Part shown: piece by piece, positions 15,221 to 29,002 of the stretch | Numbering within the stretch: the first letter of the stretch is position 1 | Layout of the letters: each line of letters begins with the position of its first letter | Assembly: GCF_040419245.1 (NCBI RefSeq) | Contig: NZ_JAZHOH010000001.1 | Location: 1,550,001-1,614,000 of the forward strand | Origin: Ewingella sp. CoE-038-23 | GTDB taxonomy: Bacteria > Pseudomonadota > Gammaproteobacteria > Enterobacterales > Enterobacteriaceae | Direction: 5' to 3' | DNA: 64,000 nt | The notes under the pieces: model-generated | Told to the model about the DNA's origin: nothing | The model's database searches: none | Seen by the model: the letters and a program-made list of their open reading frames with translations, nothing else | Made by a program: the position numbers and the translations under genes

Positions 15221-15837
15221 TTGATCATTCCTCTTCAAAAACAAACCGAGGGTGGAAAGCTGTACACACGCATTCCTGAGATTGAAGCCAGGTTGACAGA
15301 ATTAGTCACCCTCACGGATGAAAATCTGATTCAGTTGTGTAAGCAGAGCAATACACATCCGCAATATGTGCCCAGTGAATGTCTTCTTTACTTCGTCCGG
15401 CGCAGCGCATTGACTAACCAAACTCTTTTTGATCCCCTCTTCAGGATCCTCTCAGAACGCATTTTCAGGAAGCTTCCTCGAGCCGCTAATCCTGGTGGAA
15501 GTTCTGTATCAATGCTGAACAGCGACATTCAGGAGAGCGTTTTTGACCGTTTTGTTGAAATGCTCATGCTCGATAAAGCGGGTTATGATGCACGACTGGA
15601 CATGTTTGAAATCCGTTTTGACAAAGCCGTTTTAAGTCTAAAAAACGATGCCCTGCAGAAGTCTTATCGGTCTGAGAAAAGAAATACTGAGCTGGAGTAC
15701 GATGATTCAGAGGACATTACTTCAGAGGTTGAAACTGCTTCTGAAGGTTTTAATCCTTTTGAACAAACAGATTTCAATCATTTTCATTACCGTCGTGAGC
15801 TTGATGCGGCGATTGAGACTGAATAGACCCTAGTTTC

Positions 15838-16689
15838 CTAGACTGTTCCGTGCCTCATGAACCAGGCACTTTCATAAACTGCAGGGGCTTGATCCTCACA
15901 GGCACTGTGGCGGCGTTTAGCATTATAAAACATCTCGACATAATCGAAGATATCCGCCTTCGCTTCTTCCCTATTTTTATAGATCCGTTTCTTTATGCGT
16001 TCCCGTTTTAGCAACTGGAAAAAGCTTTCTGCCACTGCGTTGTCATGGCAATTACCCCGACGACTCATGCTGCTTTTTAAATTGTGAGCTGTCATAAAAT
16101 GCTGACATCTTTCGCTCGTATATTGAGAGCCCTGATCTGAATGGATTAATACTTCTGCCGTTGGTTTACGTCGCCATACCGCCATCAATAATGCATCCAT
16201 TACTAACTCAGCGGTCATTCGTCCGCCCATGCTCCAGCCGATAACCCTGCGTGAGAAGAGATCAAGAACAACAGCCAGATACAGCCAACCCTCATGCGTC
16301 CTTATATAAGTCATGTCACTCACCCAATGCGTATTTGGGGTTGGGACAACGAACTGGCGTTCAAGGTAATTTGGACTGGCAAAAGAAGGCTTTCCGCCAC
16401 CGTAATAGCGTCGTTTTCGGTATCCAGTCTGAGATGCTAGTTCAGCGAGCCTCATCAGGCGCGCGATCCTGTTACGTCCGACGCATTCACCCAGATCTTT
16501 CATATCGAGCCAGATTTTTCGATAGCCGTAAACCGTACCGCTTTCAAGCCACAGTTGTTTAATCAAGCCTGTTTGCCGTTCATCTTGCCGGGTACGCAAA
16601 GATTTAGGCCGCTTTAGCCACTGGTAATAACCGCTGTGATGGAGGCCAAGAACCAGGCATAACCTGCGTACAGCATAAAAGGACGACAT
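15838..16689 (-). CDS. IS3-family transposase OrfB (catalytic domain)
   Basis: A 283-residue integrase-type (rve) catalytic subunit made as part of an OrfAB fusion by frameshifting. It has an HTH_21 region (QDERQTGLIKQLWLESGTVYGYRKIWLDM), then the DDE triad: WVSDMTYIRTHEGWLYL (first Asp), VLIHSDQGSQYTS (second Asp) and NCHDNAVAESFFQLLKRE (Glu). This is a complete, apparently functional catalytic core. The reading frame continues upstream of the ATG at 16689 without a stop to the slippery site, as expected for a fused product. Confidence 0.93.
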   Translation of the reverse strand: MSSFYAVRRLCLVLGLHHSGYYQWLKRPKSLRTRQDERQTGLIKQLWLESGTVYGYRKIWLDMKDLGECVGRNRIARLMRLAELASQTGYRKRRYYGGGKPSFASPNYLERQFVVPTPNTHWVSDMTYIRTHEGWLYLAVVLDLFSRRVIGWSMGGRMTAELVMDALLMAVWRRKPTAEVLIHSDQGSQYTSERCQHFMTAHNLKSSMSRRGNCHDNAVAESFFQLLKRERIKKRIYKNREEAKADIFDYVEMFYNAKRRHSACEDQAPAVYESAWFMRHGTV

Positions 16690-16709
16690 TTTTTTAATGA
16701 AGGCGTACT

Positions 16710-16988
16710 TCAGCCTGACGTTCTTGCAAAGTACGCGGCGGCCTTTTTTAAGATATCCCGCTCTTCAGTTACTCGCTTAAGTTCTTGCCTGAGGCGCTTT
16801 ACTTCATGCTGAAGTGCATCGTCCTGCTTACGCTGCGGCTCGGGCTTCTGGTAGCGCTTAACCCAGGCGTAAAGACTATTAGTGGATACACCAAGTCGAG
16901 AGGAGACCTCAGATACAGGGTACCCCTGCTCAGTGATCTGTTTTACGGCTTCAATTTTGAATTCTTCAGTGAACGTTTTGACTGACAT
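16710..16988 (-). CDS. IS3-family transposase OrfA (DNA-binding)
   Basis: A 92-residue HTH protein (FTEEFKIEAVKQITEQGYPVSEVSSRLGVSTNSLYAWVKRY) with a leucine-zipper-like coiled coil (ALQHEVKRLRQELKRVTEERDILKKAAAYFA). It recognises the inverted repeats and dimerises the transposase. I chose the ATG at 16988, which follows AAGGAGTGTTT. It overlaps the -1 frame leading into orfB. Confidence 0.93.
   Translation of the reverse strand: MSVKTFTEEFKIEAVKQITEQGYPVSEVSSRLGVSTNSLYAWVKRYQKPEPQRKQDDALQHEVKRLRQELKRVTEERDILKKAAAYFARTSG
16743..16751 (-). promoter_or_regulatory. programmed -1 frameshift site of the IS
   Basis: The orfA codons TTA-AAA-AAG contain the A AAA AAG slippery heptamer. A -1 shift here leads into the open frame that continues to orfB, the standard way IS3-family elements make OrfAB. 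Confidence 0.85.
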
Positions 16989-17230
16989 AAACACTCCTTC
17001 ATTAGGCCTCCATTATGAGGCAAAAAAGTGTCTACGAAACCCGGGTCTATTCAGACTTTACCCGATCTACAGAAGCGAATCATTGAGATGATCCGATTAG
17101 ATTTTCCAATAGACTCCATCGACCCTCAAGAGATGACAATTTCTAAGGCTCTTAACAAGTCTGAAAAAACCATCCATAATCAGAAAAACAGGGCGTTTGC
17201 ACGTCTGAAAAAATTGCTTGAAGGGGGCAT

Positions 17231-17809
17231 ATGATGACCGGACTTTCACCTCAGGCATCCCTGGAAGAGGTGCTGGAGTCATTTTCCATAGAGCATGATG
17301 TGGGAAAAGCGACTCTGCAAAAGTACCTCACAGCCTTCCCAGAATTTGCCAATGACCTCATAGATTTATCTCGAGAGATAGCTAGATCATCAATTGAGCA
17401 TGATGCACCACTCTCTGAGTCCCAGCGCCGCTTAATCAATTCGGCTGTCACTCGCATCCAGACGTCACCGGGGAAAACAACAGGTGACCCCTTCGCCAAT
17501 ATTCCGGCTAAGGAAATGCGTCATCTCGCTAAATCGCTTAATCTCCCCCGGCAGGTTGTTATGGCATTTAAAGAACGAAACGTAATTGCCGAGTCTGTTC
17601 CCCGGAAGGTTATGATCAGCTTTGCTGAAAAACTTCAGACAAGCGTTCAGCACCTGTTTACATCCCTCAAACAGCCACACATGGAGGTTGCAGGGAGCTA
17701 TAAGTCCAACACTAAACCGGGTGATGCAGAAAAGATTACTTTTGAACAACTGCTGCGGGATGCTGACTGGCCTGAGCACGATATCAGTCACTTAATGGAA
17801 GAGGATTGA
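17231..17809 (+). CDS. small HTH-like protein in the ubiquitin-like operon
   Basis: A 192-residue soluble protein. The stretch IPAKEMRHLAKSLNLPRQVVMAFKERNVIAESVPRKVMISFAEKLQTSVQHLF (about residues 94-145) resembles a lambda-repressor-type HTH with a following helix, as in antitoxins and phage repressors. The N-terminal 90 residues are helical. It overlaps the sigma-like stop codon (ATATGATG), and the next gene starts 4 bp after it, so the genes form one tight unit. It may be an antitoxin- or repressor-like partner of the ImmA/IrrE domain encoded next, since ImmA-type peptidases often cleave such regulators. That link is inference. Confidence 0.65.
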   Translation: MMTGLSPQASLEEVLESFSIEHDVGKATLQKYLTAFPEFANDLIDLSREIARSSIEHDAPLSESQRRLINSAVTRIQTSPGKTTGDPFANIPAKEMRHLAKSLNLPRQVVMAFKERNVIAESVPRKVMISFAEKLQTSVQHLFTSLKQPHMEVAGSYKSNTKPGDAEKITFEQLLRDADWPEHDISHLMEED

Positions 17810-17813
17810 TAAC

Positions 17814-20800
17814 GTGCAAGCCGTGGAACTGGCTCGCAAGGCCGCTGCTGCTCTACATGACCAAGCCGTTGCTTCAGGACATAATCCATGGGCACCCTAT
17901 GAGTTTGCTGTTGCAGAAGCAAAACGGCGAGGCCTTGATGTGGAGAGAACCAGTAAAGGATCTCCTAATCTGAGGGGCGCACGGGCTCGCTTTATTCCAG
18001 AGGAGATGTTTATCCTCCACGAAAAATGTGCAACTCTTTTTGAACAGGCATTCCTCGTCGCTCATGAAATTGGTCATGCTGAACTTGGAGATGATGTCGA
18101 AGAGGATGAGAAGAGTTATACGATAGATCCCACCAGGACATCGGAATCCTCGCCTTTGGGAGTTGAACGAGTCGTTGATTACAGCCGCAGACAGCGAAGA
18201 GAGGTCCAGATGGATCTATTTGCGCGCGAGTTTTTGCTGCCGAGGCATTTTGTCAGCACGCTTTATCTGGAAGGCCAAAGTGCTTCAAGTATTGCCGAAA
18301 GGCTTGGCGCGCCGTTTGACGTCGTTGCCCTGCAACTTTTTGATGCACTACTGTTGCCCCCGACATTGCCTGAAAATCAAAAGCCAGCAATTGAATTTCC
18401 CCTAAACGATGAACAGGCAGAAGCCGCTGCTCATCGTGGCGCTGCCTTTCTGCTTGAAGCCGGACCCGGCACAGGAAAAACACAGACATTGGTAGGCCGT
18501 GTTAAAGGACTGCTTAATGAAGGGGTTGATCCCCGTAAAATTCTCCTGCTGACTTTTTCAAATAAAGCCGCTGGAGAAATGGCTGAAAGGATTGCGCGAG
18601 TTGATAGCGCTGCTGCGGCTGCGATGTGGATCGGTACCTTCCACTCATTCGGCCTCGATTTGGTTCGCCGGTTTCACGATAAGCTGAATCTGCCGCAAGC
18701 TCCCCGAATGCTGGACCGTACAGAAGCAGTAGAACTGCTGGAGCATGAGTTCCCTAAATTAGGCTTGGTTCATTACCTCAATCTTTATGATCCAAGCCGA
18801 ATTATCGCTGACTTTCTCACCGGCATATCACGCGCTAAAGATGAGGTAGTCGATGCAAGCACTTACCTTGGACTGGCGCAGGCCATGCGCGATAGCGCTG
18901 TTGAGACTGATGCCATCCTTGAAGCAGAGAAAGCGATTGAAGTCGCCAGGGTGTACGCAGCTTATGAAAGCCTCAAGCAACAGTCTGAATGTATAGACTT
19001 TGGGGACCTGGTTTCACTACCTGTAAAGCTGCTTGAAGAAAATGAAGCTATTCGCTCTCATATTCAGTCTACCTATGAACATGTTTTGGTGGACGAATAC
19101 CAGGACGTCAACCACAGCAGCGTGCGACTGCTGAAAGCCATATGTGGTGAGGGTGAGAACCTGTGGGCAGTTGGGGATGCTAAGCAGTCAATCTATCGTT
19201 TCAGAGGTGCCTCTTCATTTAACATGACGCGCTTTGGAAATGAAGATTTTCCAGGCGGGATGCGATATCGGTTAAAAACGAACTATCGGTCGGTACCTGA
19301 AATAGTTTCAGCATTTTCGAGATTTGCGGTGGGCATGGCTGTGGGGGATGCTGAAAGCGGGCTACACCCGAACCGGGAGAGTAATGCCTGCAAACCCGAG
19401 CTTCGCTTTGTGGGACAAGGCGTCCAGCAGTCACCTGCTCTTGCAGACGCGATACAGGAAATGCTGGATGCCGGATATCCATATCGTGATCAGGCCGTTC
19501 TCTGCACAGGCAATGAAAAACTCTCAGAAATCGGGCAACAGCTCGAGCGCTTAGGCATCCCTGTTCTATTCCTAGGCAGTGTTTTCGAGCGTCCCGAGAT
19601 TAAGGATTGCCTGTCGCTGCTTTCCCTTTTGGTGGATCGCCGCGCAATGGGCCTGGTGCGAATGGCTTGCCTGCCAGAATTTACAATGTCGCTGGAAGAT
19701 GTCGGCAATATACTTGCCTGCCTGCGTGAACAAGATGACAGAGGGGACTGGAGAGAAAAAACAGATCAGTTCCAAATCTCTGAGAATGGCCATGCGGTCA
19801 TAAAGCGACTGATTAAAGCACTGGATGGTTATAACGGAGCGACTTCACCCTGGACTGTGCTGGCAACTGTGCTTTTAGACAGGACACGCATAGTCGCCCG
19901 CATGGCAATGTCTCCAGCTAGCAGTAACCGCTCCCAATGTATTGCAACCTGGCAGTTACTTAATTTCTTGCGAGTCCAGCCCTCAACTGGCGAAGGATTA
20001 TTTATCACCCGCACATTAGATCGCATCCGTCGTTTAGTCCGACTCGGGGACGATCGTGACCTCCGGCAACTCCCGGTAGCAGCACAAAGCATTGACGCTG
20101 TTCGCCTCATGACCATTCATGGTGCGAAAGGGCTGGAATTTCCTGTAGTTCATATACCAGGCATGAATGCAGATACCTTACCTGGTTTTACACAAAAGCA
20201 ACCCTGCCCGCCACCCGATGGAATGATCGCCGGTAGAAAGTTTAATAACAAAGAGCAGCTCAGTCAGGAGCACAAGGCGGAGAGAGAATGCTTATTCTAC
20301 GTTGCATTGTCGAGAGCGAAGGAACAGCTATTTCTCTATGCTGCACTGCGAAACGCTGCAGGTAGTGCACGAAGGAAATCCGAGTATCTGGACCGTATTG
20401 AGCCTGATCTGGTTCAAATGAACACAGAACCCCATCATCCGGTCATTGAGCCCCCCGAATCGTTACCAATAGACTGGGCTGTGGATGGAGACCTCAAGCT
20501 CAGTGGCGATCAGGTATCACTCTATGAGTCATGTCCGCGACGATTCTTCTATACTCACGTCCTTCAGATTGGGGGAAGGCGGACGCCCACTCCATTCTCA
20601 AAAATGCACGATGCTGTCCGAAATGTGTTCAGAGATATGATCGAGGCGGAGTCGACAATATCAACAAATATGGAAGGCAGCGTTGAGCAGGCCCTCGAAG
20701 CTGAAGGTCTGGCTGAGCACGGATATGCCCCTGAGTTTAAATCTCTGGCAATAGACATGGTGAGCTATTTCAGTTCAATTCGCGAAGGCCATTCACCTGA

Positions 20801-21206
20801 AACACCCAGTGTACTCACGATTAAGCTTGGGAATATTCCTGTCACCGTACAACCTGACGATGTGCTGATTCACTCAGATGGCCGACGTACGTTTCGCCGG
20901 GTCAGAACCGGACATAAAAGAGATAAAGAAGAATCGGACCTTAGCGCTGCCGCTTTTGTACTCGCAGCAAGGAGAGCCTTTCCTGACGCGATAGTTGAGT
21001 TAGTTCATGTTTCTGATAAGACTGTAACGCCGGTTGAACTGACCACTAAGGTGCTGCATAACCGGCAGGAAAAGCTTCTTGATGCCCTGAACTCTATAGG
21101 TCGGGGGGTATTTCCCGCCGAATCATCATCCCGTGTTTGTCCCTCCTGCCCGGCATTTTTCGTCTGCGGATTGACACCGCCAGGCGTGCTTCAAAAAAAA
21201 TTCTAA
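17814..21206 (+). CDS. ImmA/IrrE metallopeptidase - UvrD-like helicase - PD-(D/E)xK-like nuclease fusion
   Basis: A 1130-residue protein. Residues 1-175 form an ImmA/IrrE zinc peptidase (HEIGHAE at 84-90, later EVQMDLFAREFLLP). Residues 195-870 form a superfamily 1 helicase: GPGTGKT near 217, DEYQD, GDAKQSIYRFRG, TNYRS, MTIHGAKGLEFP and FYVALSRAKEQL. The C-terminal third resembles the AddB/RecB iron-sulfur nuclease: YESCPRRFF near 907, with CPSCPAFFVC (CxxCx5C) near 1110 giving the four cysteines. The usual D-x-K catalytic strand appears as FRRVRTGHK, so nuclease activity is doubtful. It starts at GTG 17814 after GAGG. I expect a DNA-end processing and signalling role in defence or damage response. 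Confidence 0.88.
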   Translation: MQAVELARKAAAALHDQAVASGHNPWAPYEFAVAEAKRRGLDVERTSKGSPNLRGARARFIPEEMFILHEKCATLFEQAFLVAHEIGHAELGDDVEEDEKSYTIDPTRTSESSPLGVERVVDYSRRQRREVQMDLFAREFLLPRHFVSTLYLEGQSASSIAERLGAPFDVVALQLFDALLLPPTLPENQKPAIEFPLNDEQAEAAAHRGAAFLLEAGPGTGKTQTLVGRVKGLLNEGVDPRKILLLTFSNKAAGEMAERIARVDSAAAAAMWIGTFHSFGLDLVRRFHDKLNLPQAPRMLDRTEAVELLEHEFPKLGLVHYLNLYDPSRIIADFLTGISRAKDEVVDASTYLGLAQAMRDSAVETDAILEAEKAIEVARVYAAYESLKQQSECIDFGDLVSLPVKLLEENEAIRSHIQSTYEHVLVDEYQDVNHSSVRLLKAICGEGENLWAVGDAKQSIYRFRGASSFNMTRFGNEDFPGGMRYRLKTNYRSVPEIVSAFSRFAVGMAVGDAESGLHPNRESNACKPELRFVGQGVQQSPALADAIQEMLDAGYPYRDQAVLCTGNEKLSEIGQQLERLGIPVLFLGSVFERPEIKDCLSLLSLLVDRRAMGLVRMACLPEFTMSLEDVGNILACLREQDDRGDWREKTDQFQISENGHAVIKRLIKALDGYNGATSPWTVLATVLLDRTRIVARMAMSPASSNRSQCIATWQLLNFLRVQPSTGEGLFITRTLDRIRRLVRLGDDRDLRQLPVAAQSIDAVRLMTIHGAKGLEFPVVHIPGMNADTLPGFTQKQPCPPPDGMIAGRKFNNKEQLSQEHKAERECLFYVALSRAKEQLFLYAALRNAAGSARRKSEYLDRIEPDLVQMNTEPHHPVIEPPESLPIDWAVDGDLKLSGDQVSLYESCPRRFFYTHVLQIGGRRTPTPFSKMHDAVRNVFRDMIEAESTISTNMEGSVEQALEAEGLAEHGYAPEFKSLAIDMVSYFSSIREGHSPETPSVLTIKLGNIPVTVQPDDVLIHSDGRRTFRRVRTGHKRDKEESDLSAAAFVLAARRAFPDAIVELVHVSDKTVTPVELTTKVLHNRQEKLLDALNSIGRGVFPAESSSRVCPSCPAFFVCGLTPPGVLQKKF

Positions 21207-21289
21207 AATAATTTACCGCTTTGGTAGCGCTGCATCGATTGAGTATTAGAGCCAGACACCGTCTGGCCAAACTCAAGGACATGCACAAG

Positions 21290-22045
21290 ATGAACAGCCA
21301 AAATATTAACAATATCGACGATGTCGGAGAAGCGATTCGCGAAGGCCGCGAACTGCGTCCGGCAAATGCCTACCGCATCCTGTTTGCGCAGGAAAACCTG
21401 GATTTTCACGCAATTGAGATCAATGACCCAGTTCCACTGGGGCGTCAGATTCTGATTGCCGCAGGCCTGCGTGTAAATGATGGTTACAGCCTCTTCGCTA
21501 TTCTTCAGACGGGCGACTTTGAAGATCTGCGACTTGATGAACTTTTCGATTTACGCGGTCGTGGCGCTGAACGGTTCGTGGCCTTCCAGACCGATCGTGA
21601 TTTCAAACTTACCGTAAACCACAGCCAGGTATCGTGGGGAAAACCTGCAATTTCGGGAGCAGCACTTTATGAGCTGGCAAAACCAGCCGATGGCGATGCT
21701 GTATTTATGGTTGTCCGTGGCGGTGATGATCGCCAGATTGAACCGAATGAGGCGGTGGATCTTACGACGCCGGGCATTGAACACTTTGTAACGGCGCCAA
21801 AGCGTAAACCAAAGATTGATATCGTCGTTAACGGGCGTGAAGTTCAGGTCAGCGATAGTCATCAAACTTTCGAGCAATTTGTGGCTATCGCATATCCAGG
21901 CGAAGCCCCAACTGCAGAGATCGTTTATTCAATCACATATCGTGGAGCGGACTCAAAACCACACAGTGGTGAGTTAGCTGCGGGTGCCTATATCAACGTG
22001 AAAAACGGGAGCGTGATCAATGTCGGCCGCACTATTCAATCTTAA
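21290..22045 (+). CDS. multi-ubiquitin-like protein (three beta-grasp repeats)
   Basis: A 251-residue protein made of three ubiquitin-like beta-grasp units in tandem. They span roughly residues 18-95 (YRILFAQENLDFHAIEINDPVPLGRQILIAAGL to GAERFVAF), 96-170 (FKLTVNHSQVSWGKPAISGAALYELA to GIEHFVTA) and 175-251 (KIDIVVNGREVQV...TFEQFVAIAY). It matches the Multi_ubiq type that sits beside E1/E2-like genes. The C-terminus ends RTIQS, not with a Gly-Gly, so a protease cut or another linkage chemistry would be needed for conjugation. I chose the ATG at 21290 behind AAGGA; upstream residues are unlike the family. Its end overlaps the E1 gene by 26 bp, so expression is coupled. Confidence 0.88.
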   Translation: MNSQNINNIDDVGEAIREGRELRPANAYRILFAQENLDFHAIEINDPVPLGRQILIAAGLRVNDGYSLFAILQTGDFEDLRLDELFDLRGRGAERFVAFQTDRDFKLTVNHSQVSWGKPAISGAALYELAKPADGDAVFMVVRGGDDRQIEPNEAVDLTTPGIEHFVTAPKRKPKIDIVVNGREVQVSDSHQTFEQFVAIAYPGEAPTAEIVYSITYRGADSKPHSGELAAGAYINVKNGSVINVGRTIQS

Positions 22046-23195
22046 TAGCGATCTGAAGCGCTTGCGCGAAGAAGGTTATCACGTACAAATTGTGGGTGGC
22101 TTTCTGGTCATGCGTGACGTTCCGTACGTTAACGCGCAACGGGAAGTTAAAACCGGCACGCTCATATCGAGTCTTTGCCTGTCTGGAGACGCTACTCAAA
22201 AACCGGAACCACACACTATTCACTTTGATGGAGAATTTCCATGCACTTCCCAGGGGGGGCGCATCCAGGCTATTTTTCATCAGAGTGAAGCGGTAAATCT
22301 TGGGCATGGACTGTCTGCTCAGCACTTATTCTCCAGTAAGCCTGGGCCTGAAGGTTACAGTGACTACCATCAGAAGATGTCCACCTATGCGACGATCATC
22401 TCTGGCCACGCCGCAACCCTCAAACCTGGCGTTAGCCCACGTGTTTTTAAAACCCCTGATGAGGAGGAAGGGGGCGTCTTTAACTATCTTGAAACTGCAT
22501 CTGATCGGGTCGGGATCGGGGCATTAACTGCACGGCTTGAAGGTCAGCATATTGCCATCATCGGTGTCGGTGGTACAGGTTCCTATATACTGGACCAGAT
22601 AGCTAAAACACCAGTCAGTGAGATACGTCTCATCGATGGTGATGATTTTCTTCAGCACAACGCTTTTCGCGCCCCCGGCGCCCCGTCGATTAACACTCTC
22701 AGGGAAGTGCCGAAGAAAGTGGATTACCTGGCGGGAATTTACGGTCAGATGCACCGTCGTATCGTGACGTATGCAGTACAGATAAGCCAGGATAGTCTTA
22801 CTCTCTTGGACGGAATTACCTTTGCCTTCCTTTGTATGGACGCAGGAGAGCCAAAACGCTTAGCGATGCAGAAGCTGGAAGACATGGGCGTGTCATTCAT
22901 AGACGTGGGAATGGGGCTCGAGCTGGTGGACGGATCGCTGGGTGGCATCCTGAGGGTGACGACCAGTACTCCAGAGAAACGAGATCACATTCGCACACGT
23001 GTGTCTTTTAAGGAGAGTGGCGCAGAAAACGTTTACGCTTCAAATATTCAAGTCGCCGAGTTAAACATGTTGAATGCGGCACTTGCCGTCATCAAATGGA
23101 AGAAACTACTCGGATTTTATCGTGATCTTGAAAATGAACGTAACTGTTCATATACGACTGACGGGAATATGTTACTGAATGGTGACTTACTATGA
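22020..23195 (+). CDS. E2-like/E1-like ThiF-family adenylyltransferase
   Basis: A 391-residue protein predicted to activate the neighbouring ubiquitin-like protein. Residues 1-145 resemble the E2-like DUF6791 domain (HTIHFDGEFPCTSQGG..., GYSDYHQKMSTYATIISGHA); the Cys in EFPC near 77 is a candidate thioester site. Residues 165-391 are the ThiF/E1 domain: IAIIGVGGTGSYILDQIAKTPVSEIRLIDGDDF binds ATP, and FLCMDAGEPKRL follows. It begins inside the ubiquitin-like gene and overlaps the DUF6527 gene by 4 bp (ATGA). The E2-before-E1 fusion is a known bacterial arrangement in ubiquitin-like operons. Substrate unknown. Confidence 0.85.
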   Translation: MSAALFNLNSDLKRLREEGYHVQIVGGFLVMRDVPYVNAQREVKTGTLISSLCLSGDATQKPEPHTIHFDGEFPCTSQGGRIQAIFHQSEAVNLGHGLSAQHLFSSKPGPEGYSDYHQKMSTYATIISGHAATLKPGVSPRVFKTPDEEEGGVFNYLETASDRVGIGALTARLEGQHIAIIGVGGTGSYILDQIAKTPVSEIRLIDGDDFLQHNAFRAPGAPSINTLREVPKKVDYLAGIYGQMHRRIVTYAVQISQDSLTLLDGITFAFLCMDAGEPKRLAMQKLEDMGVSFIDVGMGLELVDGSLGGILRVTTSTPEKRDHIRTRVSFKESGAENVYASNIQVAELNMLNAALAVIKWKKLLGFYRDLENERNCSYTTDGNMLLNGDLL

Positions 23196-23650
23196 TACGC
23201 CATAACCAACTGACCCCGTGTTTCGTTAAAGGGATTCCGCGAGAAATTGAACCAAGTATCCTGTATGTTTCCATGGAGTATGGCACAGTGATTCACAATT
23301 GCTGTTGTGGTTGCGGGCATGAGGTTGTAACGCCTCTGACCCCAACTGACTGGAAGCTGACTTTCGATGGCGAGACCGTGTCGCTGTGGCCATCAGTGGG
23401 AAACTGGAATTTACCCTGTCGATCTCACTATGTAATCCAGTGTAACCGCGTACTGAAAGCACCTCCTTGGGATAAAGCCAGAATCGATGCAGAGATGCGT
23501 CGAGATAAAGCGGCTAAGAAGCGTTATTACGCGCAGACTAATGCGATGGTAGCATCTGAAGAGCTGAAACAGGAGCCAACTGAGGAGCCGTCTGGGATGA
23601 GAACCGAGCCATTATCTCTTTGGAATAAGATAAGGAAGTGGCTGAGTTAG
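23192..23650 (+). CDS. DUF6527 protein (zinc-binding, ubiquitin-like operon partner)
   Basis: A 152-residue protein. The core is ILYVSMEYGTVIHNCCCGCGHEVVTPLTPTDWKLTFDGETVSLWPSVGNWNLPCRSHYVI, which I recognise as DUF6527. Four clustered cysteines (CCCGC) with CRSH could bind zinc. Families of this type accompany multi-ubiquitin and E1/E2 genes and have been proposed as processing peptidases or accessory factors. The C-terminal 50 residues are charged and low complexity (KAAKKRYYAQ..EELKQEPTEEP). Its start overlaps the E1 stop codon. It is the last gene of the operon; only a small frame of doubtful reality follows. Confidence 0.8.
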   Translation: MIRHNQLTPCFVKGIPREIEPSILYVSMEYGTVIHNCCCGCGHEVVTPLTPTDWKLTFDGETVSLWPSVGNWNLPCRSHYVIQCNRVLKAPPWDKARIDAEMRRDKAAKKRYYAQTNAMVASEELKQEPTEEPSGMRTEPLSLWNKIRKWLS

Positions 23651-24053: not shown

Positions 24054-26255
24054 CTAACCAGCTACCACTGACTGTTCGTCTAATTTTGGATTATTAATAT
24101 CCATTGTTGCATCAATACATATTTTCCTAACATAAGTGATACCTGGTAAAGAGCGTGTGTGAAGACGCCCTGCCAATTCTTTTGAACGAGTTGGCCACAT
24201 GTTAGCATGAAGGGTCATGGGCAAATTAGGTATAGGCGTAGGCCCCCAAATTCCCCTCCGATAAACCATAACTCCATCCACAAACCATTTAATCTCATCA
24301 GGCCCCCATTCAATCATGTAATCATGAAACTCTTCTGAAGCATCAAACCCTAAAGGAATAAAAGTTGGTGTGCCACGATACCCATAATCAAATTTTGCTC
24401 CTTCATCACCAGGATTATAAAAAACATTGACCAGCATATGGTCAGGCCTATTCCCAACAAACTCAATATCGATTTCTTGACGAGGTGAATCTCTATGTAA
24501 AAAGAAGCCAGTTACTATCCCTGGGATTTTTGCCGCCCGTAAGGACACCTCGAATCTACCATATAGAAATCTCATCCTACTTGAAATCGCTGCGGCACTA
24601 AACTCTCTAACTCCTAACTGTTCCGCTTTGACAACAAGATCTAATCCACTAATATCATTTTGAATCACATTTTGAGGTCGAAACAGCCCAAGATTCCCAG
24701 GAAAAGTATCATCGCGAACCTCCCAATATTCATTATTAATATTTTGCAGTGAATCAATGATGGAGAAGTTAACAAGGTCTTTTTTAATTCGCTTCGGATC
24801 GGGTTTTATAAAAAAACCATTCCCTGACAAATTTTTTCTTTCTAATATCCAAGGGGAATTGTCATGTGTCATGCTAATTTCTGAATTATTAAATTTTTCT
24901 TTGACGTTATCTTCTATAATCTGCCTGGAAACAATATCATCTATTTCTGGGTACATTGAGATGGGCGGAGGGCATTGAAGGTATTCACATATAACCTTCC
25001 ATTTGTTTTTTTCACCTAAATGCAGTATCACACAGTCAGTATCACTAAGATCTTTAATTATATTGGAGGTCAACTCATCGATTTTCTTTGAATCACTAAT
25101 GGTAACTATAAATTTTGCTTGTGGATATTCTTTTTTTAATAAAACGATATTCCTACTGAGGCACCCGACATTTACATAAGCGTTGAATTTACCCCCCCCT
25201 GAATTATCCAATAGTTTTTTTAAGTCTTCATCGGGAAGTCGATCAATATCACTGCAACACTTATAACCAAGCATGGATAGTGCCATACCCAAAGAAGAAA
25301 TGCCTGAACCGTTTGCGCCAAATGAAAAAACAGGCCAATGTACTGGAAGCTCATTAAAGTTTGAAGCTTTTTCATTGTCAATAATGCCAACCTTCACTAG
25401 GGTAGGTAATATTGAATAGGAATTGGATGAGTTAAAATCCAATCTCTGCGCAATGATCGATTTATGCACTGCTCTCACATCGAGTTTTTCATATTGATGA
25501 TTTATCCATAAGTCAATTGGTCCATAGGTTGGTAGGAGCGAGAGAATTTTATTTGCTCCTTTTTTAGATAATACATATCCTGAAAAATACCATAATCCTC
25601 GTTCTGGTTTAAATATATGTTCAGAAATTATTTTCTTTTTCGCACCATTCATAACCTCTTTAAACGACAAATATAAGATATCAAATTTAGGTGAAGATCT
25701 ATCAGCCTGAATCATTTCAAACCAAGCGGCATCTAAGATTTTGGCGAAATCTCTTTCGAAATACACGTCATCTTCAAGAACTAAAGCATACTCATCAGAG
25801 CCTTCTGCAATTAGTCTGATAACATTTATGTGCGATAATGCTACAGCAATTTCTGCCTTACTCATTTTTATTGGTACATCGAGATCAAATTTATCAGGTA
25901 AAATTCTTGGCTGAGGATCAACATATAATTGGTCTGCTAAAGTATAATAAGGGATAACTTCTTCCTCATTGAGGGCACCTGACATTTCCCTAGCATTTAT
26001 AGCGGAGAATCTGGTTAATTGCCCAGTTAATTTTTTATTGGATTTATCTCGTACTTTATCCAACTCTTTATTTAAATCTAGCCATCTGACTGTTTCACGA
26101 TCTAAGTTTATAGCGTAAATCCTACTAATACCCTCCCCGCTTTGATCTAAAGTGTTAAATGTTGATGATTTTTGTGCTGGGAAAAATAACCGAGAGCGCA
26201 AATAAAAAGAGTAAAGAAAACGGTTGATGCCTTTTAGATGTTTATTAATATTCAT
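24054..26255 (-). CDS. three-domain glycan enzyme: GT25 glycosyltransferase, sulfotransferase-like, GH16
   Basis: A 733-residue protein with no signal peptide. About residues 45-290 match glycosyltransferase family 25 (IYAINLDRETVRW, LVLEDDVYFERDF). Residues 305-450 look like a PAPS sulfotransferase: VFSFGANGSGISSLGMALSMLGYKC for the P-loop, KKEYPQAKFIVTISD for the PAPS-binding strand, and WKVICEYLQCPPP. Residues 530-725 are a glycoside hydrolase 16 domain with the catalytic motif EIDIEF near 593. The combination suggests building and modifying or trimming one glycan. It is markedly AT-rich, a sign of transfer, and lies 15 bp after a GT32 gene. The joint role is inferred. Confidence 0.78.
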   Translation of the reverse strand: MNINKHLKGINRFLYSFYLRSRLFFPAQKSSTFNTLDQSGEGISRIYAINLDRETVRWLDLNKELDKVRDKSNKKLTGQLTRFSAINAREMSGALNEEEVIPYYTLADQLYVDPQPRILPDKFDLDVPIKMSKAEIAVALSHINVIRLIAEGSDEYALVLEDDVYFERDFAKILDAAWFEMIQADRSSPKFDILYLSFKEVMNGAKKKIISEHIFKPERGLWYFSGYVLSKKGANKILSLLPTYGPIDLWINHQYEKLDVRAVHKSIIAQRLDFNSSNSYSILPTLVKVGIIDNEKASNFNELPVHWPVFSFGANGSGISSLGMALSMLGYKCCSDIDRLPDEDLKKLLDNSGGGKFNAYVNVGCLSRNIVLLKKEYPQAKFIVTISDSKKIDELTSNIIKDLSDTDCVILHLGEKNKWKVICEYLQCPPPISMYPEIDDIVSRQIIEDNVKEKFNNSEISMTHDNSPWILERKNLSGNGFFIKPDPKRIKKDLVNFSIIDSLQNINNEYWEVRDDTFPGNLGLFRPQNVIQNDISGLDLVVKAEQLGVREFSAAAISSRMRFLYGRFEVSLRAAKIPGIVTGFFLHRDSPRQEIDIEFVGNRPDHMLVNVFYNPGDEGAKFDYGYRGTPTFIPLGFDASEEFHDYMIEWGPDEIKWFVDGVMVYRRGIWGPTPIPNLPMTLHANMWPTRSKELAGRLHTRSLPGITYVRKICIDATMDINNPKLDEQSVVAG

Positions 26256-26270
26256 AAATAAAAGTTCCTT

Positions 26271-27080
26271 TTAATTCATCATGCGCCAATTTCTATAATC
26301 AGATCTATATTCTAATTCCCACTTGGTTTCTGCAATGCTTTCCCAGTTTGATATAATCGTGATTTTGGATGATAAATCTATTTCTTTACGACATGAAAAT
26401 ATAGATTTAGATAAATTACCTGGGCCAGTTATTGACTGAATGTCTGTAGGGGGGAGGCTTGAATTATTAAGTAAGCATGTTGATTGCTCCAGTGCTTTAT
26501 CAACTATAATATGATGAGGTGGAGCAATTAACGGATTGTTATTGAAATAAAAAATCCAAGATTCTTCATAAGTGTTTCCTTCAGTGAATATCACCGGGGG
26601 AATCATAGAGTCAGTGGTTATATCGTAGCATAGAGGTTGTATTTTTAATTTATCATCCCTAAAAAAAACATCTATATCACTACCTAGATAAACATCATCA
26701 GTATCAACATACCCCCCCCCCTTTACCGAGATGTAACATAATCGGAAATAATCTGATTGCATAGCAGGATGAGTGCATTTGGCAAAAGCTTCGCTGTGTG
26801 CTTTGTCTAAATTATGCTCAATGAATTTTTTAGCACTTACACAGTCATATAAATAATATTCATACCCAAAAGACTCTAGAACATTCCATGATTTCATGCA
26901 ATGTATGACATCATTAGGGATATTATTGGGTGAGTCCCAAAATTGAATGATTTTTTTTGGTATAGTGCATGAAGAAATGGGGTGTGGGTAAATCTCGTCA
27001 ACAGGCTGTTGAATGAGTTTTCTGATAAACTCCGAACGCTGTTGATAGTTCTCTTCTTTAGCTTCATCTGATTCCATCAT
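26271..27080 (-). CDS. GT32-type (DXD) glycosyltransferase
   Basis: A 269-residue cytoplasmic glycosyltransferase of the 'sugar-binding DXD' family, common in capsule and O-antigen clusters. The core is IPKKIIQFWDSPNNIPNDVIHCMKSW (about 40-65) and SDYFRLCYISVKGGGYVDTDDVYLGSDID (about 120-150), where YVDTDD holds the metal- and sugar-nucleotide-binding DXD. The acceptor and donor are unknown. I chose the ATG at 27080, close behind AAGGA. It is AT-rich and forms a two-gene operon with the GT25/sulfotransferase/GH16 gene. Confidence 0.82.
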   Translation of the reverse strand: MMESDEAKEENYQQRSEFIRKLIQQPVDEIYPHPISSCTIPKKIIQFWDSPNNIPNDVIHCMKSWNVLESFGYEYYLYDCVSAKKFIEHNLDKAHSEAFAKCTHPAMQSDYFRLCYISVKGGGYVDTDDVYLGSDIDVFFRDDKLKIQPLCYDITTDSMIPPVIFTEGNTYEESWIFYFNNNPLIAPPHHIIVDKALEQSTCLLNNSSLPPTDIQSITGPGNLSKSIFSCRKEIDLSSKITIISNWESIAETKWELEYRSDYRNWRMMN

Positions 27081-27499
27081 AGGTTCCTTCAAAAACTAAT
27101 GTTTAAAAAAGATAAAATATAAGGACGAAAACAAGTAATTAACTATAGTATTCTAAACCAGCTTGGATTTTTATCAATGTGGATTTTTACTTTCATGAGA
27201 CATATTTTTATAATGTATTTTGCCAAAGCTCGTAGGCCAGCCAGAACTCAATTTGATAAGAAAACCAGTCTTGGATGGCGCAAAGATCATAGTCCGCTCC
27301 TCGCTCATAACTGACCTAATCCGTTTCCGTAGATAGTTCTAAATGATAAGTGGAACTCACACTTTCGATTCACGCAGGTCAATTCGGTTGAAGATGCTCA
27401 TAAACGGTTTAACAATTTCTTCGAGTTGAAGCCAGAAAAATGCCGTACCAGTACAGACTGATACGGCTATCTCTGTGGTTTATTTTGTCAGAAGGGTTA
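27081..27499. other. 419-bp gap between GT32 and integrase, no gene seen
   Basis: AT-rich upstream part should hold the promoter of the leftward GT genes. The rest (27200-27500), GC-neutral, shows no family-like reading frame. A decayed remnant is possible. Confidence 0.45.
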
Positions 27500-28765
27500 T
27501 CACATTGTGTAACTGATTTCCTTCCCACAAATATAAGGTGGGGCATACGCTTTCCGGCACATATCCAGATAATCCGACCACCACTGCATCATCGCTTTAC
27601 GGGCATCGAGATATTCTGCTTTATGGATGTATGCCGCTCGAACGCTATTACGTTCCTGATGGCTCATTTGACGCTCAACGGCATCCTGTGACCATAGACC
27701 TGATTCCATAAGGGCACTACAGGCCATTGCCCGAAACCCATGGCCGCAGATTTCATCTTTTGTGTCATAGCCCATCAGGCGTAGCGCCTTGTTGACCGTG
27801 TTTTCACACATCGGTTTATAAGGATTGTGATCGCCGGGAAATACCAGCACCTGATGACCGGATATTTCCCGTATCTGTTTCAGAATAGCAATAGACTGAC
27901 AGGAGAGTGGAACGATATGTGGAGTACGCATTTTTGCACCACGCCCAGAGTAGCGGACACCTGGGATGGACTCGCGAGTGGCAGGAATGGTCCAGATTCT
28001 ATTTTTGAAATCGATCTCAGACCAACGGGCGAAACGCAGTTCGCTGGAACGGATGAATAGGTGCAGGGTGAGTAATACGGCCAGGCGGGTTAACTCTCGT
28101 CCTTGCTTGTAGTCCTCAATGCGAGCCAACAGTTCCGGCAGTCGCTCCAGCGGAAGGGCAGGGTAGTGGCGTTTAACGGGAGGGGCGATGATACCGTCCA
28201 GATTTGCTGCCGGATTGTGTTCTATCAACTCCTGATGTACGGCATGACGCATGATGTTGCACATATGCTGCCGGGTACGTGCTGCGACTTCCAGCAAACC
28301 TTTTGTCTCGATGCCCTTCAGCAGGTCAATAAAGTGACGAGGTTTCAGTTCAGTTACCGGCAGGTGTCCAATCACAGGAAATATATGATTGTTCATGCTG
28401 GCAAGCAGACGGGTTGCGTGGTTCTCTGACCATGTACGGTTGCTTTTATGCCACTCCAGTGCCACATACTTGAAAGTTTTTTCTGGCGAGGAAGTGGCTC
28501 TTTCAGTAGAGCGCTGTTGTGCTGGATTGATATTATGCGCCAGCAATTTACGGATACCATCACGCTGTTGACGAGCATCAGCCAAAGATACGTCGGGATA
28601 GGCACCCAAGCCGAGACGGGATTCTTTTCCATTGATACGATATTTGAGATACCAGAGACGTGAACCGCCTGGATTGACTAAAAGGTATAGGCCGTGAGAA
28701 TCGGAAACTTTAAAGGGTTTTGGGGATGGTTTTAAGTTGCGGATTTTTGAGTCGTTAAGAGACAT
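27500..28765 (-). CDS. int: HPI/P4-type tyrosine integrase
   Basis: A 421-residue site-specific recombinase that inserts and excises the element at the Asn tRNA. It has the DUF4102 arm-binding start (MSLNDSKIRNLKPSPKPFKVSDSHGLYLLVNPGGSRLWYLKYR), then the core-binding and catalytic domains with RSSELRFARWSEID (catalytic Arg), HGFRAMACSALMESG (HxxR) and the active-site tyrosine in MSHQERNSVRAAYIHKAEYL. The sequence is very close in my memory to the Yersinia HPI integrase. It starts 162 bp from the tRNA end and reads away from it, as in HPI. Confidence 0.93.
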   Translation of the reverse strand: MSLNDSKIRNLKPSPKPFKVSDSHGLYLLVNPGGSRLWYLKYRINGKESRLGLGAYPDVSLADARQQRDGIRKLLAHNINPAQQRSTERATSSPEKTFKYVALEWHKSNRTWSENHATRLLASMNNHIFPVIGHLPVTELKPRHFIDLLKGIETKGLLEVAARTRQHMCNIMRHAVHQELIEHNPAANLDGIIAPPVKRHYPALPLERLPELLARIEDYKQGRELTRLAVLLTLHLFIRSSELRFARWSEIDFKNRIWTIPATRESIPGVRYSGRGAKMRTPHIVPLSCQSIAILKQIREISGHQVLVFPGDHNPYKPMCENTVNKALRLMGYDTKDEICGHGFRAMACSALMESGLWSQDAVERQMSHQERNSVRAAYIHKAEYLDARKAMMQWWSDYLDMCRKAYAPPYICGKEISYTM

Positions 28766-28925
28766 TTGGGGGTCACTCCGTCATCGAACGAACTTGACCC
28801 CAAATCTGACCACCAAATTCTCCCGATGCGGAGGGAAAACTGAAAATGCATCGGGAAGACTTTTCACGCTAACTCATTGAATTCGAATCATATAGGGATT
28901 CGCAAAGTGGCATGAAAATAAGAAT

Positions 28926-28942
28926 TTGGCTCCTCTGACTGG
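28926..28942 (-). repeat. attachment site core (17 bp) in the tRNA 3' end
   Basis: Read on the minus strand this is CCAGTCAGAGGAGCCAA, the core used by HPI-type elements in Asn tRNA genes. It marks the right junction. The matching copy should lie left of this window. Confidence 0.8.
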
Positions 28943-29002
28943 ACTCGAACCAGTGACATACGGATTAACAGTCCGCCGTTCTACCGACTGAACTACAGAG
29001 GA
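28927..29002 (-). tRNA. asnT: tRNA-Asn (anticodon GTT)
   Basis: Read on the minus strand, the 76-nt gene begins TCCTCTGTAGTTCAG, has anticodon GTT in CTGTTAATC, the T-loop GGTTCGAGTCC, and ends CAGAGGA-G-CCA with an encoded CCA. The acceptor stem is TCCTCTG/CAGAGGA. The element integrated at its 3' end and kept the tRNA complete. mtfA lies beyond its 5' end, as in E. coli, where mtfA is next to asnT. Confidence 0.96.

What the first reader, a model, noticed from the sequence alone, without database searches (positions are those of the whole stretch)
15221..23650. Ubiquitin-like conjugation operon linked to a helicase-nuclease and a sigma-like regulator
Six tightly packed genes on one strand encode a sigma-70-like protein, an HTH-like protein, an ImmA/IrrE-UvrD fusion, a three-repeat ubiquitin-like protein, an E2/E1-like ThiF protein and DUF6527. 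Overlaps (4 to 26 bp) and short gaps say they act together. Ubiquitin-like, E1 and E2 parts resemble known bacterial conjugation systems in antiviral defence. The added helicase with a metallopeptidase and its own sigma-like gene suggests that DNA or phage sensing is coupled to protein modification.
Basis: partly seen in the sequence, partly recalled or inferred. Interest (0 to 1): 0.95.

Follow-up and report, generated by a model that had tools for sequence, protein, structure and literature searches.

The report
Sigma switch on bacterial ubiquitin-like operon
A bacterial operon for a ubiquitin-like protein-tagging system carries three extra genes that likely act as its DNA-damage-triggered on-switch, with a dedicated sigma factor predicted to start transcription at two conserved promoter-like sites (here the sigma gene is cut by a mobile element); it matters because the same three genes also sit in front of Bil operons, a known phage defence.

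Summary
The last three genes (multi-ubiquitin, DUF6791-ThiF, DUF6527) fit class 6e, described in 2006. New here is the upstream trio: sigma factor-like, HTH-like, ImmA-UvrD. All three lie upstream of the core in 61 of 67 loci with enough flank. The trio also precedes two other ubiquitin-like cores, including BilABCD. In four relatives CapK+CapS, DNA-damage-responsive regulators, take its place. A two-block sequence, TT[A/T]CCG-17 nt-CGAT, lies between UvrD and the core in 61 of 62 gaps and in 0 of 6 loci lacking the trio. A second copy lies inside 56 of 60 sigma genes, is kept at synonymous sites and co-varies with the first. I read the trio as a transcription switch for the core, likely gated by DNA damage; the damage step and the defence role are untested. 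The PD-(D/E)XK catalytic motif is absent in all 68 close sequences. In this genome the switch is probably broken.

The parts
15221..15819 (+). sigma factor-like gene, N-terminal part (sigma-2-like region); TTG start with GGAGG before it, frame also open from ATG 15206
   Evidence: ORF; intact relatives of about 260 aa; fold of an intact Shewanella relative
15787..15815 (+). internal promoter-like site P1: TTACCG-N17-CGATTG inside the sigma gene
   Evidence: 56 of 60 intact sigma genes carry it, synonymous-site conservation, co-variation with P2
15820..17053 (-). IS3-family insertion element interrupting the sigma gene, 4 bases past P1; target duplication GAC at 15817-15819 and 17054-17056
17057..17234 (+). 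sigma factor-like gene, C-terminal part (sigma region 4 helix-turn-helix)
   Evidence: Sigma70_r4 E=1.2e-4, below the curated cut-off, on the open frame from 17028; same ending as intact relatives
17231..17809 (+). HTH-like protein, 192 aa; predicted partner or substrate of the M78 peptidase
   Evidence: full-length homologues kept from 69 loci; HTH only weakly supported: CI-type E=0.028 in the window protein, sporadic HTH families in relatives
17814..21206 (+). M78 (ImmA/IrrE) metallopeptidase - UvrD SF1 helicase - pseudo-PD-(D/E)XK domain with four cysteines (1130 aa)
   Evidence: HExxH+E130, key helicase residues and 4 Cys in 81 of 81; no D/E at the (D/E)xK place in 68 of 68 close sequences
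21213..21241 (+). promoter-like site P2: TTACCG-N17-CGATTG between UvrD and multi-ubiquitin
   Evidence: 61 of 62 gaps; 0 of 6 loci lacking the trio
21290..22045 (+). multi-ubiquitin protein, three beta-grasp repeats, C-terminus ...NVGRTIQS, no Gly-Gly
   Evidence: PF14452 E=9.4e-51, 3 stretches; alignment
22020..23195 (+). DUF6791-ThiF: E1-like adenylation domain with an N-terminal domain holding the only invariant Cys (C75)
23192..23650 (+). DUF6527 protein, invariant C37, C39, C41, C76, S78, H79; predicted metal-binding
   Evidence: PF20137 E=1.3e-23; 26-row alignment

Best explanation
The operon joins a three-gene ubiquitin-like conjugation core to a three-gene upstream module (sigma factor-like, HTH-like, ImmA-UvrD) that is likely its DNA-damage-gated transcription switch, the sigma factor being predicted to start transcription at two conserved promoter-like sites, one inside its own gene and one in front of the core, while in this genome an IS3 element cuts the sigma gene. 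Shown: gene order, conservation, the two sites, the module's recurrence on three core types, its replacement by CapK+CapS in four loci, intact peptidase and helicase motifs, and the lost nuclease motif. Inferred: (1) at rest the HTH-like protein holds the sigma factor or its promoters inactive; (2) UvrD binds damaged or phage DNA and switches on the fused M78 peptidase; (3) the peptidase cleaves the HTH-like protein, as ImmA, IrrE and CapP do to their HTH partners (recalled); (4) freed sigma factor fires P1 (HTH + ImmA-UvrD) and P2 (multi-ubiquitin, E1, DUF6527); (5) the core tags proteins with the multi-ubiquitin. Because of the IS3, the core here is probably not inducible by this route.
Confidence: 0.66

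Rival explanations
1. ImmA-UvrD is a working part of the pathway (a DNA-bound effector or the target that brings the ubiquitin-like tag to phage or damaged DNA), not a regulator.
For: It is large, highly conserved, goes with three different conjugation cores, and its helicase and peptidase motifs are intact in 81 of 81.
Against: Cores with CapK+CapS instead, or neither (L070), lack it; it travels with sigma-like and HTH-like genes and the two sites; its nuclease motif is lost.
Confidence: 0.2
2. The TT[A/T]CCG-N17-CGAT sites are operators bound by the HTH-like protein, and transcription uses the housekeeping sigma factor.
For: Sites lie before both gene blocks and are absent in 6 of 6 loci without the trio.
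Against: Two unlike blocks at a fixed 17-base spacing (61 of 62) look like -35/-10 elements; the whole site is not a repeat of one half-site; variants in the first block co-vary between copies, as one sigma factor would require.
Confidence: 0.17
3. The system is a general DNA-damage or stress response, not phage defence.
For: [quoted passage not shown]
Against: Same trio before BilABCD, which that paper cites as an anti-phage pathway with works so titled; mobile islands and plasmids.
Confidence: 0.3
4. In this genome the operon is a decaying relic: the IS3 removes the sigma factor and parts P1 from its genes, so the intact core ORFs are not induced.
For: IS3 with intact duplication in the sigma gene, 4 bases past P1; two E. 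coli copies have IS1 cutting UvrD; the Lonsdalea copy has broken multi-ubiquitin and ThiF.
Against: HTH, UvrD, multi-ubiquitin, ThiF and DUF6527 frames remain open, as after a recent insertion; transcription from the IS end is possible.
Confidence: 0.6

Closest known systems
Class 6e polyubiquitin-like operons (Iyer et al. 2006, PMC1779556; passages read)
   Same: Tandem ubiquitin-like protein, E1 with a distinct N-terminal domain in place of JAB, small metal-binding protein; listed from proteobacteria, actinobacteria, cyanobacteria
   Different: That table row names no sigma, HTH or ImmA-UvrD genes; 'UvrD' and 'sigma factor' occur 0 times in the text
Bub (bacterial ubiquitination-like) operons, Citrobacter BubA/BubB/BubCD (seen through PDB entries; Gong 2025 and Ye 2026 not held)
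   Different: N-terminal half and DUF6527 show no sequence match to Bub chains; multi-ubiquitin matches a BubA fragment only at E=0.35
Bil (BilABCD)
   Same: Ubiquitin-like conjugation; in 8 of the 14 plasmid loci opened the same trio precedes BilABCD-like genes (PADLOC models in the two tested)
   Different: No Bil model among the PADLOC hits shown for the window proteins and no JAB protease by Pfam
CapH+CapP, CapW and CapK+CapS controllers of immune operons (PMC13373217, passages and one section read)
   Same: Upstream regulatory genes of Bub, Bil and CBASS operons; CapH+CapP is an HTH and peptidase pair (that CapP is ImmA-type is recalled)
   Different: Here the peptidase is fused to a UvrD helicase and a dedicated sigma factor with its own sites is present; the passages read do not mention such a module
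Gabija GajB / PcrA-type UvrD helicases
   Same: UvrD core scores with GajB, Rep and PcrA models
   Different: N-terminal M78 peptidase and C-terminal pseudo-nuclease; no GajA model among the PADLOC hits shown for the operon's proteins

Membership tests
Class 6e polyUbl operon (Iyer 2006) | protein with two or three ubiquitin-like repeats | tested here: met
   PF14452, three stretches, E=9.4e-51
Class 6e polyUbl operon (Iyer 2006) | E1 domain fused to JAB or to a distinct domain X | tested here: met
Class 6e polyUbl operon (Iyer 2006) | metal-binding protein Y | tested here: inconclusive
   DUF6527 has four invariant Cys; identity with Y is inferred
Class 6e polyUbl operon (Iyer 2006) | inactive E2/RWD-like domain | tested here: inconclusive
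   no separate E2 in the window; DUF6791 has an E2-like strand order and invariant C75 but no match
Bub | E2-E1 fusion related to BubCD | tested here: inconclusive
Bub | BubB-type partner | tested here: inconclusive
   DUF6527 profile finds no PDB chain at E<=5
Bil | BilA, BilB, BilC and BilD | tested here: not met
   no Bil model among the hits shown for seven window proteins; L103 and L106 do match
Sigma-70 family factor | region 4 helix-turn-helix | tested here: met
   Sigma70_r4_2 in 34 of 41 relatives at E<=0.05, the window's part below the curated cut-off; region-4 rows align 61-68 residues at 1.4-3.7 A
Sigma-70 family factor | region 2 | tested here: inconclusive
   top PDB matches are two-domain sigma factors spanning about residues 45-262, large rmsd
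Active PD-(D/E)XK nuclease | (D/E)xK catalytic motif | tested here: not met
   R/C/K/T/H at residue 1029 in 68 of 68, R/F/S/N in 13 of 13 distant ones as aligned
M78 metallopeptidase with HTH partner (CapP/CapH, ImmA/ImmR type) | HExxH zinc motif | tested here: met
   81 of 81
M78 metallopeptidase with HTH partner (CapP/CapH, ImmA/ImmR type) | adjacent HTH protein cleaved on DNA damage | not testable with these tools
   adjacent protein conserved; HTH weak; cleavage needs an experiment

The most novel reading that the evidence does not exclude
A portable sigma-factor switch drives bacterial ubiquitin-like immunity: UvrD feels damaged or invading DNA, its fused peptidase frees a dedicated sigma factor, and that factor fires one promoter nested inside its own coding sequence and one before whatever conjugation core it has been joined to (multi-ubiquitin, multi-ubiquitin-E2 or Bil).
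Probability: 0.42. Interest if true: 0.87.

Novelty: new variant of a known kind. Interest (0 to 1): 0.76.

Why it matters
Bacterial ubiquitin-like systems are studied as relatives of eukaryotic ubiquitination and as phage defence, but what turns them on is mostly open. A module shared by three kinds of conjugation core, exchangeable with CapK+CapS, with a dedicated sigma factor and two readable promoter-like sites makes the trigger directly testable with a reporter. A promoter kept at synonymous sites inside the coding sequence of its own sigma factor would be an unusual circuit. The module is also a search handle: TT[A/T]CCG-N17-CGAT before an unknown operon next to this UvrD would point to new ubiquitin-like systems.

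Tried and rejected
Viral contigs: the two patterns used gave 58 stretches, none confirmed as ImmA-UvrD, so I do not call it phage-borne. Wider regulon: 4 exact TTACCG-N17-CGATT matches in the 5.16-Mb genome, 2 of them in this operon, against 2 for the backward control; no regulon claimed. A looser site (one mismatch per block, spacer 14-19) is near chance over the whole window: 34 and 38 hits on the two strands against a shuffled mean of 28.3. In the type-A loci outside the gaps the TT[A/T]CCG-N17-CGAT pattern has 63 further hits in 2.3 Mb of both strands, most of them the copy inside the sigma gene. DUF6791 against the E2-bearing proteins of the two other cores by profile comparison: no similarity. 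DUF6527 against PDB: none. Same site before the sigma gene: 0 of 60. Leader hairpin after P2: stems of 6 or more in 11 of 61 against 8 of 305 shuffled, not general, not pursued. sigma70-type promoter and terminator scans: no excess. CapK of L058 gave no PDB match at E<=1 and no convincing Pfam domain; calling it CapK rests on its place before CapS and on the paper's description.

Literature: none of the papers listed was seen to describe the trio, but some lists were cut (15 of 31; 25 of 34; 15 of 21,137, unspecific terms) and only four papers were opened. Chambers 2024, Gong 2025 and Ye 2026 were looked up and are not held; Millman 2022 and Hor 2024 were not looked up. So absence from print is not shown. 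Seen: passages of PMC1779556, PMC11354881, PMC12687455 and PMC13373217, plus one section of the last. Recalled, from no call: that ImmA, IrrE and CapP cleave HTH partners; ECF promoter spacing and start distance; the PD-(D/E)XK and iron-sulphur cysteine motifs; E2 fold order.

Dropped rows: gaps outside 30-200 bases and sequences off the median length, with stops or N, were left out before the counts of 62 gaps and 60 sigma genes; 'trio present' means a tblastn match to each gene, not an intact frame (L049's UvrD looks broken); the UvrD tree used 44 of 81 rows; 80 of 136 confirmed core loci were returned; plasmid tables list 60 of 92 or 93 UvrD records.
Full report
What is in the window. Pfam gives M78 peptidase, UvrD helicase and PD-(D/E)XK in one 1130-aa protein, a three-repeat Multi_ubiq protein, DUF6791+ThiF and DUF6527. 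The sigma-like gene is not intact: an IS3-family element fills 15820-17053 on the other strand, with matching inverted ends, a GAC duplication, one full copy in the assembly and 99.7% identity to Pantoea plasmid copies. The part before the IS3 has no Pfam match at E<=1; the part after it carries sigma region 4 (E=1.2e-4, below the cut-off). Intact homologues of about 260 aa exist in a Klebsiella plasmid, E. coli CP61 and others.

Setting. The operon sits in a stretch of lower GC that ends near a phage-type integrase at 27500-28765 beside tRNA-Asn. Relatives lie on plasmids (116 of 72,556 plasmid records match the E1 protein), beside Tn7-like genes and, in E. coli, in 3 of 5,426 genomes (H31-H33; a fourth record matched only 41 bases), next to an integrase and tRNA-Leu.

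The association is real. A scan of one genome per species gave 80 loci encoding the DUF6791-ThiF protein (of 136 confirmed). tblastn with all six proteins and a tally: 67 loci hold at least 6.5 kb upstream; 61 show all three trio genes, 2 only a partial UvrD (L036, L038), 4 none (L058, L064, L065, L070). Of 13 with shorter flanks, 5 show all three, 5 a partial UvrD, 3 none (L033, L042, L060). The trio genes are packed (median gaps 2 and 4 bases), the core genes overlap or nearly touch, and between UvrD and multi-ubiquitin there is a conserved gap, median 85 bases by tblastn ends. Hosts include Pseudomonadota, Acidobacteriota, Verrucomicrobiota, one archaeal metagenome bin and a cyanobacterial plasmid.

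The trio is not tied to one core. In plasmids, UvrD relatives at E<=1e-100 occur in 92 of 72,556 records. I opened 14 of the less similar ones (L093-L106). Five have a multi-ubiquitin protein with an E2 part (Prok-E2_E seen by Pfam in L094; the others by tblastn, L096 a longer variant), a JAB-ThiF protein and DUF6527 (L094-L098); in L096 the trio is divergent. Eight have matches to BilA, BilB, BilC and BilD in order (L093, L100-L106), confirmed by PADLOC models in the two tested, L103 and L106 (E 1.4e-45 to 6.5e-175). L099 has an IS66 gene after UvrD and a multi-ubiquitin-E2 match further on. Sigma or HTH queries missed L096 (sigma), L103 (HTH) and L104 (both), where genes of like size stand in place. 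A UvrD tree of 44 of 81 rows needs 4 changes among the three core types (5 with L099 as its own label); it warns of long branches (L104, L103, L098, L099). So the trio has moved between cores.

The trio can be replaced by known regulators. In L058, L060, L064 and L065 the slot holds two genes. The second one of L058 matches solved CapS of Enterobacter roggenkampii (9Z71, E=1.5e-52) and Vibrio cholerae (9Z72, 7.7e-45; identities stated in PMC13373217); the other three loci match L058 in both genes. The first gene fits the CapK description but has no domain match of its own. That paper shows that CapK and CapS turn on the next immune operon after DNA damage, and names Bub, Bil and CBASS among those they precede. 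No locus of L004-L092 showed both modules.

Two promoter-like sites. In the UvrD to multi-ubiquitin gap, word pairs such as TTAC..CGAT with a fixed spacer occur in 25 of 30 non-redundant gaps (20 letter shuffles: at most 3). TT[A/T]CCG-N17-CGAT is in 61 of 62 gaps; L019 has an 18-base spacer (read). It is exact in L093, L094, L095, L097 and L098 (read), off by one or two in L101 and L100, and not found at this spacing in L102-L106. It is absent from the 160 bases before multi-ubiquitin in all 6 loci without the trio, one mismatch per block allowed (one of the six, L042, is a short contig). The same site occurs inside 56 of 60 intact sigma genes and in 0 of 60 upstream stretches of up to 300 bases; also in 6 of 14 of the less similar loci (L093, L094, L095, L097, L098, L099). 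In 37 of 41 non-redundant genes it lies in one frame, 208-217 bases before the stop; L019, L071, L079 and L081 lack it. Codons there are TAC (31 of 31 Tyr), GCG (35 of 35 Ala) and ATT (36 of 36 Ile), with T before, against background 54% TAC, 33% GCG, 21% T at third places; where Ala is replaced the codons are TCG and ACG (counted among rows holding the site, so biased upward). A group of mostly sphingomonad loci has TTTCCGG in both copies, with Phe instead of Tyr; over 32 non-redundant loci the seventh base agrees as G or not G in 32 of 32 (P=5e-6) and the third base in 31 of 32 (P=3e-5), without correction for relatedness. I read the sites as -35/-10 elements of the operon's own sigma factor. 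In the window P1 lies at 15787-15815 and P2 at 21213-21241; the IS3 begins 4 bases past P1.

Mechanism. The trio looks like a controller: it lies upstream or divergent, is exchangeable with CapK+CapS, carries its own sigma factor and sites, and some cores do without it. By analogy with peptidase-HTH pairs (recalled) the M78 domain would cleave the HTH-like protein when UvrD meets damaged DNA, freeing the sigma factor to fire P1 and P2. Steps of sensing and cleavage are inferred, and the HTH itself is weak.

Known and new. The core is class 6e of Iyer 2006 and a relative of Bub. I found no text describing the trio in the searches listed under Tried and rejected, but the main Bub and Bil papers were not readable here.

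Noticed in passing
window 27500-29002: A phage-type integrase (PF00589, PF13356) beside tRNA-Asn marks one end of a lower-GC island that holds the operon.
   Followed up: partly
L005 and L006 (E. coli STEC383 and ES2): IS1 elements lie at the cut end of a truncated UvrD gene, sigma and HTH genes are not found, while multi-ubiquitin, ThiF and P2 stay intact; IS damage may strike the regulatory half repeatedly.
   Followed up: partly
L067 1-2750 (Lonsdalea britannica, Pectobacteriaceae): A copy 99% identical in its E1 segment, with multi-ubiquitin and ThiF frames broken and the upstream part beyond the contig end.
   Followed up: no
window 21251-21267: Perfect hairpin GCCAGAC-ACC-GTCTGGC in the multi-ubiquitin leader; the Klebsiella copy has a compensating A-T to G-C change, but many relatives lack a long stem.
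   Followed up: partly
200 bases upstream of sigma genes in relatives: Words such as ATGATC and TGATCGAG recur in 7-11 of 43 non-redundant upstream stretches, slightly above 20 letter shuffles; possibly a separate control site for the sigma gene.
   Followed up: no
L058, L060, L064, L065 before multi-ubiquitin: TTTAA/TTAA repeats in place of P2, fitting the TTAA half-sites reported for CapS.
   Followed up: no
L042 15-2026: A separate M78 peptidase and HTH pair with a GNAT-like and a small DNA-binding-type gene, divergent from a core without the trio on a short contig; possibly a CapH+CapP-like controller.
   Followed up: no
window 24054-27092: Protein with GT25 and GH16 domains and a DXD glycosyltransferase next to the operon, with much lower GC.
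   Followed up: no
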